This document shows, one piece after another, positions 55,139-57,992 of a DNA stretch of 57,992 bases. The stretch covers positions 1-57,992 of the forward strand of contig JAJYLT010000025.1 of assembly GCA_021787565.1 (NCBI GenBank). Direction: 5' to 3'. A program made the translations under genes and the position numbers. Positions within the stretch are counted from its first letter, which is position 1. Each line of letters opens with the position of its first letter. Source of the DNA: Acidobacteriota bacterium (lineage in GTDB: Bacteria > Acidobacteriota > UBA4820 > DSQY01). Below the pieces are notes generated by a model, which was given only the letters and a program-made list of their open reading frames with translations, was not told the origin of the DNA and made no database searches.

Positions 55139-55951
55139 TCAACAGGGCGGATCGCCTTGGTAATAGCTGGTCTCAAAGAAGCGGCTCTGCAATACCTCGA
55201 GGAACCGGCCCGCCTTGCCGGTCCTCTGACAGCAGAAGAAGAGGCTCACGGCAAAGCCCGGCAACAGGCGGGCGAGCGGTCTGGCGAGGGATTTCGGGAA
55301 GGGGTAGAAGTTGGATCCCCCGACCTCGACGACGCGGAAGTAGCCGTCCTCCTCGATGAAGCGCCGGAACCCCGGCTTCGTGAAGCCGCGCACGTGCGGT
55401 CCCAGCACGTCGATGGGACTCGGCTGCATGCCCAGGCCCAGCATGACGCGGCTGTGGAGCGAGGCCAGATTGGGAACTCCAACGATGAAGAGGCCGCCCG
55501 GCTTCAAGACCCGCGACACCTCCGAGGCGATCCAGAAGATCTCCTTGGTATGCTCCATCATCTGGTTCGCCAGGACTACGTCCAGGAAGCCCGCTTCGAA
55601 GGGGAAGGCGCTGCGCTCCACGTCCGCCTGGCGCACGTCCACGCCCAAGGCCCTCGCCGCTTCCACGTAGGGTGGATGGCTCTCCAGGCCGAAGAGCCTC
55701 GTGCGGCGATGTGCCAGGGACTTCTCCACGTTCAAGAGATCGGCTCCCGTTCCGAGGCCGATGTCCAGAATGTTCAGCTCTCCCTCGGCGGTGTTCCGCG
55801 CATGGCGGCGAGCCATGCCCGCGATCACCTCGCGCCCGTAGTTCAGCTCCACCGTGCGCGCCTTGAGCCTGGCGAACAATTCCCGCATCTTCGCAGCCTT
55901 TCGTGGCACCTCCGGCCCGACGCCTCCCGAGCCATCATGCAGGGCGGTCAT
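55139..55951 (-). CDS. SAM-dependent methyltransferase (class I)
   Basis: The 270-residue product has the methyltransferase I motif LDIGLGTGADLLN near residue 56 and a post-I acidic contact (FGLESHPPYVEAAR). Motif IV is ANQMMEHTKEIFWIASEVSRVLKPGG near 125, followed by FIVGVPNLASLHSR. The C-terminal third (about 180-270) has no known substrate domain. It may methylate a lipid, quinone or sugar. ATG 55951 is chosen for the GGAGGAGGG ribosome binding site and the ATGA overlap with the uvrC stop. Substrate unknown. Confidence 0.87.
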   Translation of the reverse strand: MTALHDGSGGVGPEVPRKAAKMRELFARLKARTVELNYGREVIAGMARRHARNTAEGELNILDIGLGTGADLLNVEKSLAHRRTRLFGLESHPPYVEAARALGVDVRQADVERSAFPFEAGFLDVVLANQMMEHTKEIFWIASEVSRVLKPGGLFIVGVPNLASLHSRVMLGLGMQPSPIDVLGPHVRGFTKPGFRRFIEEDGYFRVVEVGGSNFYPFPKSLARPLARLLPGFAVSLFFCCQRTGKAGRFLEVLQSRFFETSYYQGDPPC

Positions 55952-57750
55952 TCTCCCTCCTCCACGCGCTTCTTCTCCTCGGTCTCCTGCTTCGCCCACG
56001 CCATGACCTTGCGCGCCGCGGCCTTCCCCACCGCCCGGACGAGCTGCTCCCTTGTGGCCTCCTTGACGGCGGCCGTGGTGAGGAAGGCCCTCAGCAGCTT
56101 CTTCGCGGTGATGGGGCCGACCCCAGGGACGGCGAGCAGCGGCGAGGCTATCCGCGCTTTCGCTCGGCGGCGGCGATGCGCGGCGATGGCGAAGCGGTGA
56201 GCCTCGTCCCGGATCTGCTGCAAGAGGTGGAGCGCGGGCGACTCCTTGGGAAGGACGATGGGGGCCGGTTCGTGGGGCCGGAAGAGCCACTCCTCGCGCT
56301 TGGCCAGTCCCGCCATGGGCGGGGGGTCCGGCAGAAGCCGGACCAGCGCGGCGTGGGCCGCGTTGACCTGGCCGGGGCCGCCGTCGATGAGCACCAGGTC
56401 CGGGAGCTCCCCGCCCTCCTCCAGGAGTCGCGTGTAGCGGCGCCCGACCACCTCGGCCATGGAGGCGAAATCATCGATCCCCTCCACCGACTTGATGTTG
56501 AAGTGGCGGTAATCGGACTTCTGCATTCTTCCCTCCTCCCACACGACGCAGGAGGCCACCGTCGCCTCGCCGTGGCTATGGGAGATGTCGAAGCACTCGA
56601 TGCGCCTCGGCGCCCCCTCCAGGCCCAGGCTTTCCACGAGAGGACCAAGGACGGTGGAGGGATCCACGTGCTCGTCGAATTCCAGCCTCGCGTTCTCCAC
56701 GAGCGTGGCGACGAGCGCCGCCCTCTCGCCCCGCTGGGGCCTGAGCACCCGGACCCTTCTCCCTTTGCGTTCGGAGAGGAACCGCTCGAGCAGGGGCAGA
56801 TCCTGGAATTCGTGAGAGACCACCACCCCATCCGGCAGCACCGACGCGTTGCCGTAGAGGCGGGTGAGCATGGCAGCCAGCAGATCCTCGCCCGCAAGCT
56901 CCACCTGGTCGAAACGCCAGCGGCGGCGGTCCACCACCTTGCCGTCCACCACGACGAAGCCGTGGATCACCCAGGCCTCGCCTCCTCCGTAGAGGGCGAA
57001 GTACTCCCAGTGTCCCTCGCCGGGTCTGGCCACCGCTTGGCGCCCACCCAGGAATTCCGCGGCCCGCTCGAGGTCCCGATAGTGCGCGGCCTGCTCGTAG
57101 TCCTGACGCCGCGCGGCGGCCAGCATGCGGCCGTGCAGCTCCTCGCGCAGGTCGGCGGTCCGCCCCTCCAAGAAGAGCCTGGCCTCTTCCACCACGGCGG
57201 CGTATTGGTCGGGCGGCACCCTCCCTTTGATGCAGGGGGCATAGCACTGTCCCATCTCGTAGTAGAGGCAGGGGCGGAGCCGGGAGCCGTCGAGCGGGTC
57301 CTTGCAGGTGACCACGCGAAAGTGCTCCTGGAGGATCCGCAGATTCTTCTTGGCCTGCCAGCCGGGCACAAAGGGTCCGTAGTAGAGCGCTCCGTCCTTC
57401 TCGGGCCGGCGCGTGAAGACCGCCTTGGGGTAGCGGTCCTTCACCGTCAGCTTGACGTAGGGATAGGTCTTGTCGTCCTTGAGGAGCGTGTTGTAGCGGG
57501 GCTTGAACTGCTTGATGAGGTTGTTCTCGAGGAGAAAGGCCTCCCACTCGCTCGCCGTGACGATGAACTCGAGGTCGACCGCCTGCTGTCGGAGGCGGCG
57601 GATCTTGAGAGGCACCTCGGACTGGAAGTAGCTGGATACTCTCGCCCGGAGGTTCTTGGCTTTGCCCACATAGAGCGGGCGCTTCTTCGCGTCTCGAAAA
57701 ATATAGCATCCGGGCCGCGAGGGCGGAGGCTGAGGCGGATGATCCAGCAT
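55948..57750 (-). CDS. uvrC: Excinuclease ABC subunit C
   Basis: The 600-residue endonuclease makes both cuts at DNA damage. The N-terminal GIY-YIG domain is recognisable in GCYIF and LYVGKAKNLRARVSSYF (about residues 14-42). The four cysteines that hold the Fe-S cluster appear as TCKD, PCLYY, QCYA and PC (about 150-176). A UVR domain is near 200-235, the RNase H-like domain has FDISHSHGEATVASCVVW near 395, and the tail holds helix-hairpin-helix LLAVPGVGPITAKKLL. Everything is present and the length is typical. ATG 57750 has AGGTGA upstream. It is the first gene of the pair with the methyltransferase. Confidence 0.97.
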   Translation of the reverse strand: MLDHPPQPPPSRPGCYIFRDAKKRPLYVGKAKNLRARVSSYFQSEVPLKIRRLRQQAVDLEFIVTASEWEAFLLENNLIKQFKPRYNTLLKDDKTYPYVKLTVKDRYPKAVFTRRPEKDGALYYGPFVPGWQAKKNLRILQEHFRVVTCKDPLDGSRLRPCLYYEMGQCYAPCIKGRVPPDQYAAVVEEARLFLEGRTADLREELHGRMLAAARRQDYEQAAHYRDLERAAEFLGGRQAVARPGEGHWEYFALYGGGEAWVIHGFVVVDGKVVDRRRWRFDQVELAGEDLLAAMLTRLYGNASVLPDGVVVSHEFQDLPLLERFLSERKGRRVRVLRPQRGERAALVATLVENARLEFDEHVDPSTVLGPLVESLGLEGAPRRIECFDISHSHGEATVASCVVWEEGRMQKSDYRHFNIKSVEGIDDFASMAEVVGRRYTRLLEEGGELPDLVLIDGGPGQVNAAHAALVRLLPDPPPMAGLAKREEWLFRPHEPAPIVLPKESPALHLLQQIRDEAHRFAIAAHRRRRAKARIASPLLAVPGVGPITAKKLLRAFLTTAAVKEATREQLVRAVGKAAARKVMAWAKQETEEKKRVEEGE

Positions 57751-57807: not shown

Positions 57808-57880
57808 ATGCGCCACCAAGACACCAAGACACAAGGGGTGGGGAATGGCGAATTGAAAAAAGCAAACCACAGAGATGGGA
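57808..57880 (+). repeat. Modular word repeat, copy 3
   Basis: The order is CACCAAGACACCAAGACACA words, GGGGTGGGGAATGGCG, AATTGAAAAAAGCAAACC, ACAGAGATGGGATG. It is the same head-to-tail module order as copy 1 (15347) and copy 2 (32269). It lies upstream of the right-edge gene's folded leader. Confidence 0.7.
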
Positions 57881-57886
57881 TGAGGA

Positions 57887-57956
57887 GGCCGACCTCCACG
57901 GAGTCCAGTACACTGGCTCCAGATTTTGGCGGGCTCGAAGCCCAAGGAGGTCGGCC
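57887..57956 (+). promoter_or_regulatory. Folded leader that appears to hide the ribosome binding site
   Basis: A perfect 11-bp inverted repeat (GGCCGACCTCC at 57887-57897 and GGAGGTCGGCC at 57946-57956) closes a loop that holds two smaller hairpins: GGAG-T-CCAG with CTGG-CTCC (57900-57920) and GGGCT with AGCCC (57931-57943). The 3' arm contains the Shine-Dalgarno sequence (AAGGAGG, 57944-57950) and ends directly before the ATG at 57957. The fold would make a three-way junction that sequesters the ribosome binding site. Confidence 0.6.
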
Positions 57957-57992
57957 ATGAAGAAGGGTATCACGAAAGCGGTAGTGGTGGTG
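57957..57992 (+). CDS. Start of an unidentified gene (3' partial)
   Basis: Twelve codons are visible: MKKGITKAVVVV. The frame starts with ATG at 57957 and has AAGGAGG seven bases upstream, with the strongest ribosome binding site of the right end. The rest is outside the window. The start resembles a nucleotidyltransferase such as GalU (xxxTKAVxxxAG), or possibly an IS110-type transposase (VVVG then D). Twelve residues do not allow a decision. Confidence 0.6.
   Translation, partial: MKKGITKAVVVV

What the first reader, a model, noticed from the sequence alone, without database searches (positions are those of the whole stretch)
57887..57992. Three-way-junction leader hiding the ribosome binding site of the right-edge gene
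A perfect 11-bp stem encloses two smaller hairpins and its 3' arm contains the whole AAGGAGG sequence right before the ATG. This design would switch translation off unless the leader refolds, as in riboswitches, RNA thermometers or mobile-element leaders. The gene start (MKKGITKAVVVV) could be a GalU-type sugar nucleotidyltransferase or an IS110-type transposase. In IS110 elements a structured non-coding RNA precedes the transposase. No known riboswitch class was recognised.
Basis: partly seen in the sequence, partly recalled or inferred. Interest (0 to 1): 0.65.

Follow-up and report, generated by a model that had tools for sequence, protein, structure and literature searches.

The report
Self-locking leader of IS1111 transposase gene
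The right edge of this contig is the left end of a multi-copy jumping gene of the IS1111/IS110 kind, and its transposase message begins with a conserved three-way RNA fold, built in part from the element's own end repeat, that covers the ribosome-binding site and so probably keeps transposase production low.

Summary
Window 57887-57956 forms a perfect 11-bp stem (P1) around two hairpins; its 3' arm covers the GGAGG of the Shine-Dalgarno sequence directly before the ATG (z = -4.7, 0 of 200 shuffles). The contig stops there because this is the left end of a multi-copy insertion sequence: the last 127 bp recur at three other contig ends, and four further contig ends carry a matching right end with the same subterminal inverted repeat (sTIR). 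In relatives the same leader stands before full-length DEDD transposases (PF01548+PF02371) in elements with IS1111 geometry: AGATGGG + 15-bp sTIR left, sTIR + 3 bp right, TTGACA beside the right repeat, 229-636 nt non-coding downstream. A covariance model finds the leader in 29 of 396 Acidobacteriota genomes; in 31 distinct sequences 19 of 24 pairs show compensatory changes (140 cells, against 14-27 in slid controls). So it is a real conserved RNA fold. Most likely it is a translational brake on the transposase, as shown by experiment for ISPpu9, another IS110-family element. New here: the conserved three-way-junction class and the double use of the sTIR as DNA end and anti-Shine-Dalgarno arm. 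What opens it is unknown.

The parts
57873..57879 (+). Left-end tip of the insertion sequence (AGATGGG), the 7 bp outside the subterminal inverted repeat
   Evidence: Flanks diverge just upstream in the other G000 copies and in G005/G007; 7-bp left extension matches the IS1111 rule (PMC11187229)
57880..57894 (+). Left subterminal inverted repeat (sTIR) ATGAGGAGGCCGACC
   Evidence: Inverted copy GGTCGGTCTCCTCAT at four other contig ends of the same genome; perfect 15/15 pairs in relatives G155 and G324
57887..57897 (+). P1 5' arm GGCCGACCTCC; its first 8 nt are the inner half of the sTIR
   Evidence: Fold; covariation
57900..57920 (+). P2 hairpin with a one-nucleotide bulge (GGAG-T-CCAG TACA CTGG-CTCC)
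   Evidence: Fold; all 8 pairs show changes on both sides in relatives
57931..57943 (+). P3 hairpin GGGCT CGA AGCCC
   Evidence: Fold; 4 of 5 pairs show changes on both sides
57946..57956 (+). P1 3' arm GGAGGTCGGCC, covering the GGAGG of the Shine-Dalgarno sequence and ending at the start codon
   Evidence: Fold and opening energies
57957..57992 (+). First 12 codons (MKKGITKAVVVV) of the transposase gene, cut by the contig end
   Evidence: Same leader precedes MKKDITKTVAVGI(D) in G007 and PF01548/PF02371 transposases in relatives
57866..57992 (+). 127-bp end overlap shared with other contigs of the genome, i.e. assembly break inside a repeat
   Evidence: Identical or nearly identical at the ends of C69, C70 and C72

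Best explanation
The feature is the left end of a multi-copy IS1111-type insertion sequence together with the 5' untranslated leader of its transposase mRNA. When the element circularises, its abutted ends would place TTGACA (right end) 17-18 bp from GAAGAT (left end), a junction promoter whose transcript would start about nt 11-13 of the element, just before P1. That RNA folds into a three-way junction (P1, P2, P3). P1 pairs the inner half of the left sTIR with the Shine-Dalgarno/start region, so translation of the transposase is kept low both on junction transcripts and on read-through transcripts. The element's end repeat thus serves twice: as DNA end signal and as anti-Shine-Dalgarno arm. 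Shown here: the repeat status, the matching ends, the IS1111 geometry, the conserved fold, the linkage to IS110-family transposases. Inferred: the identity of the truncated gene in this genome, the promoter and start site, the repression of translation. Unknown: what opens the leader.
For: Last 127 bp recur at C69, C70 and C72 ends. Right ends at C15, C34, C53, C74 with matching sTIR; left and right ends occur in the same three genomes of the family. Full relatives: G155, G240, G324, G251 and G187 have left tip (AGATGGG or close variant)-sTIR, a 339-382-aa transposase ORF, 229-636 nt downstream, TTGAC beside the right sTIR, a 3-bp tip, right sTIR matches 12-15 of 15; Pfam PF01548 + PF02371. 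Leader covariance: 10 of 24 pairs in 6 sequences, slid controls 0-3; 19 of 24 pairs and 140 cells in 31 sequences, slid 14-27 cells. Model hits in 29 of 396 and 32 of 395 Acidobacteriota genomes, mostly directly at a transposase start codon, at a contig edge, or at solo/decayed left ends. Precedent: the ISPpu9 5'-UTR hides the RBS and mutations weakening it raise tnp translation (PMC8450116).
Against: The gene is cut after 12 codons here, and no PF01548 or PF02371 match is assembled in this genome. No transcript or translation data. P1 arms could in principle be conserved as DNA sites. Alignment A4 was fitted to the model, which favours its structure. Diverse IS110-family genes as a whole do not show the stem (3 of 22 at p < 0.05), so it belongs to one clade only.
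Confidence: 0.8

Rival explanations
1. The inverted repeat and hairpins are conserved as DNA (transposase or guide-RNA binding sites at the left end, or a cruciform), and covering of the ribosome-binding site is incidental.
For: P1's 5' arm is half of the sTIR, a DNA end signal; solo left ends are kept as short elements; IS ends are protein/RNA binding sites by nature.
Against: P2 and P3 vary freely in sequence but keep pairing, which DNA site recognition does not require; the P1 3' arm sits 0-2 nt from the start codon in nearly all copies.
Confidence: 0.12
2. The leader is a true switch opened by a specific factor: an antisense RNA as in ISPpu9, the transposase-seekRNA complex, or a long-range pairing with the right-end sTIR in the transcript.
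For: A conserved three-way junction is more elaborate than a simple brake needs; ISPpu9 uses an antisense RNA to open its leader (PMC8450116); the right-end sTIR carries nearly the same sequence as part of the P1 3' arm and could compete for the 5' arm.
Against: No antisense promoter, factor or ligand identified here; no Rfam match.
Confidence: 0.3
3. The leader protects specifically against read-through transcription from flanking genes (fold-back inhibition as in IS10/IS50), while the element's own transcript escapes.
For: Read-through RNA contains the whole P1 and keeps the site closed; such protection is established for other IS families (own knowledge).
Against: The predicted junction start site lies upstream of P1's 5' arm, so own transcripts would be locked too.
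Confidence: 0.15
4. A metabolite riboswitch or thermometer of an ordinary housekeeping gene such as a GalU-type nucleotidyltransferase.
Against: Multi-copy element ends, leader found before IS110-family transposases, no Rfam class.
Confidence: 0.02

Closest known systems
IS1111 family / IS1111 subgroup of IS110 (DEDD transposases with seekRNA or bridge RNA)
   Same: sTIR with 7 bp outside on the left and 3 bp on the right, short left end, long downstream non-coding region, repeat-like targets, -35-like TTGACA at the right end (PMC11187229, PMC11208160)
   Different: The descriptions read or searched here do not mention a conserved structured leader that covers the ribosome-binding site
ISPpu9 of Pseudomonas putida (IS110/IS492 type) with its tnp 5'-UTR and sRNAs Asr9 and Ssr9 (PMC8450116)
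   Same: 5'-UTR fold that buries the ribosome-binding site and lowers tnp translation; insertion into intergenic repeats; AG at the insertion site; orphan pieces of the element elsewhere in the genome
   Different: Its family is described there as lacking clear inverted repeats, and it has an antisense activator; here the blocking arm is the sTIR, the fold is a conserved three-way junction, and no antisense RNA is known
IS10/IS50/IS200 leader inhibition of transposase translation
   Same: Structured RNA at the element's end keeps the transposase start site closed (own knowledge)
   Different: Other transposase families, other end structures

Membership tests
IS1111 family | Subterminal inverted repeats of 7-17 bp, 7 bp from the left tip and 3 bp from the right tip | tested here: met
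   Own genome: ATGAGGAGGCCGACC / GGTCGGTCTCCTCAT with AGATGGG and AGA outside; relatives 12-15 of 15 matches, 15/15 in G155 and G324
IS1111 family | DEDD (PF01548) transposase with PF02371 C-terminal domain | tested here: inconclusive
   Not visible in this genome because all contigs break inside the element; met in full relatives with the same leader
IS1111 family | Longer non-coding region downstream of the transposase (seekRNA) | tested here: inconclusive
   229-636 nt in full relatives; in this genome only the last 127 bp of the right end are assembled
IS1111 family | Junction promoter when ends are abutted | tested here: inconclusive
   TTGACA beside the right sTIR and GAAGAT at the left tip with 17-18 bp between, by reading the ends; activity not testable here
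IS1111 family | Insertion at a specific target without target duplication | tested here: inconclusive
   Left and right flanks fit targets like CACAG^AGACACGGAG in G000 and GACGCG^AGACGCGAGACG in G007, but left and right flanks of one copy cannot be paired from the contigs
ISPpu9-type RBS-hiding tnp leader | 5'-UTR fold that pairs the ribosome-binding site | tested here: met
   p(paired) >= 0.998 for GGAGG; covariation
ISPpu9-type RBS-hiding tnp leader | Fold lowers translation and an antisense RNA opens it | not testable with these tools
   Needs reporter fusions and RNA data
Known Rfam riboswitch, thermometer or leader class | Score above a family's gathering threshold | tested here: not met
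   No match in the window end or in five full relatives

The most novel reading that the evidence does not exclude
A new class of conserved transposase leader: a three-way-junction RNA whose locking arm is the element's own subterminal inverted repeat, so that end recognition in DNA and translation control in RNA are tied together, and which is opened by a specific element-encoded factor (transposase-guide RNA complex, antisense RNA, or the right-end repeat in the transcript), giving RNA-guided IS1111 elements feedback control.
Probability: 0.3. Interest if true: 0.75.

Novelty: new variant of a known kind. Interest (0 to 1): 0.55.

Why it matters
IS1111/IS110 elements are RNA-guided recombinases of current interest for genome engineering, yet little is known of how they limit their own transposase. 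A conserved leader with strong covariation gives a directly testable answer for one clade, shows that an IS end repeat can be constrained by two jobs at once, and supplies a covariance model that marks such elements even when contigs break inside them, as here.

Tried and rejected
Own-genome search for PF01548 and PF02371: none, because the element's interior is unassembled. Rfam: nothing above threshold. Pattern scan of viral contigs: none; protein scan of viral contigs: no relative. Plasmid DNA search with the leader: only short chance matches. Generality outside the clade: of 20 plasmid-borne IS110-family genes only a few (Sinorhizobium, Burkholderia, Vibrio, Bosea, weakly IS4321) have a stem onto the start region at p < 0.05, and the model finds only Vibrio weakly; of 22 diverse Acidobacteriota IS110-family genes 3. 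So I rejected the idea that the leader is universal in IS110. GalU-type gene: rejected for lack of any support. The ISEc11 record was not in the collections. A search of another class with the model was not possible.

Full report
What is there. The window is the whole of contig C75 of a draft genome of 77 contigs. Its relatives with the same element are Acidobacteriota metagenome bins such as BP8.bin17 and WY4.bin4. Folding is far better than shuffles (z = -4.74). The GGAGG is paired with p >= 0.998, and opening it costs about 10-13 kcal/mol, against 2.8 without the 5' arm.

Why the contig ends there. The last 127 bp recur at the ends of C69, C70 and C72. Fetching both ends of all 77 contigs showed several repeat groups; one group of four ends (C15, C34, C53, C74) carries the inverted copy of the subterminal repeat, GGTCGGTCTCCTCATAGA, preceded by TTGACAC. 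Left end and this right end occur in exactly the same three genomes of the family. In G007 the two repeats are ATGAAGAGGCCGGCC and GGCCGGCCTCTTCAT, again matched to each other but different from G000. So the two ends change together within an element.

What element it is. Five full relatives fix the anatomy. G155 (one contig of 5.1 Mb): AGATGGG, 15-bp sTIR, leader, 353-aa transposase, 348 nt, TTGACACA, perfect sTIR, GGA. G240, G324, G251 and G187 have the same plan with 229-636 nt downstream. The proteins match PF01548 and PF02371 (for G155, G324, G251, G187 and G233). A left extension of 7 bp, sTIR of 7-17 bp and a downstream non-coding region are the published marks of the IS1111 group (PMC11187229; PMC11208160); the 3-bp right extension is from my own knowledge of that family. 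Targets in G000 look like CACAG^AGACACGGAG, i.e. the short intergenic repeats of this genome. I could not pair left and right flanks of one copy, so absence of target duplication is not shown here.

The leader is a conserved RNA. Six relatives aligned by MAFFT keep 94% of pairs, with 10 of 24 pairs changed on both sides; slid controls give 0-3. A model from these six finds the leader in 29 of 396 Acidobacteriota genomes at E <= 0.01 and a second model in 32 of 395 at E <= 0.001. On 31 distinct sequences 19 of 24 pairs change on both sides, with 140 such cells against 14-27 in slid versions and a shuffled mean of 39 (this alignment is fitted to the structure). P2 and P3 differ freely in sequence but keep pairing. 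The match usually ends at the start codon of an IS110-family open frame such as MKKVSKAQWLEEMGSDRPALTVGLDLGDRYSHY or MDHVAIDLGGRESQ; the others lie at contig edges or are solo or decayed left ends.

How it most likely works. Abutted ends would give TTGACA-17/18 bp-GAAGAT, and a start near nt 11-13 of the element, just before P1 (read). That makes the three-way junction the very 5' end of the transposase message. P1 then hides the ribosome-binding site. The blocking arm overlaps the sTIR by 8 nt, so the end repeat is under two constraints, and where the sTIR differs between elements the start-codon arm generally differs with it (G000, G155, G261; G007 keeps one mismatch). Repression itself is inferred, by analogy with ISPpu9, where the 5'-UTR structure buries the ribosome-binding site, weakening it raised expression up to 26-fold, and an antisense RNA opens it (PMC8450116). 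What opens the present leader is unknown.

Limits. The leader is not universal in IS110: 3 of 22 diverse Acidobacteriota genes and a minority of 20 plasmid genes show a stem onto the start region at p < 0.05. The transposase of this very copy is not assembled. No expression data exist here. The literature search covers open-licence papers only.

Verdict. A real, conserved feature; the mobile-element reading was right; the kind of control is known from one relative; the conserved structure class and its use of the sTIR appear undescribed in what I could search.

Noticed in passing
G000:C44:35075-35170 (L005) and G000:C33:54339-54445 (L006): Two solo copies of the element's first 72 bp, both ending at GCCCA before an AG; in C33 the right flank AGACACGAAGG looks like the target's right half. 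They resemble the orphan pieces of ISPpu9 and may be transposase-made deletions or mini-elements.
   Followed up: partly
G155:C1:1354006-1354126 (L249, 307-427): Solo left end of 121 bp followed by AGTGC, the start of this element's target right half, in an unrelated genome; so solo left ends recur.
   Followed up: partly
G115:C234, L280 410-517: A palindromic short element: left tip and sTIR at both ends in opposite orientation around the leader hairpins, about 110 bp, MITE-like.
   Followed up: partly
Contig ends C1_5, C11_5, C18_3, C21_3, C25_5, C27_5, C40_5, C63_5, C66_5 of G000: Another multi-copy element with ends CTCGTGTTTGGCCTTT lies next to GC-rich hairpins that look like transcription terminators; left and right flanks pair up as the same hairpin (e.g. 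C18_3 with C40_5, C11_5 with C66_5), which suggests a long target duplication of a whole terminator hairpin.
   Followed up: no
G083:C206 and C169 (L328, L329): Copies with a shortened transposase frame (222-226 aa) that keep leader and both ends, probably internal deletion derivatives.
   Followed up: no
Contig ends of G000: At least five other repeat groups of 4-10 contig ends, i.e. the genome is rich in active or recently active insertion sequences.
   Followed up: no
window 55948-57750, - strand: A 600-aa open frame that reads like UvrC (excinuclease ABC subunit C) lies upstream, divergent from the element.
   Followed up: no
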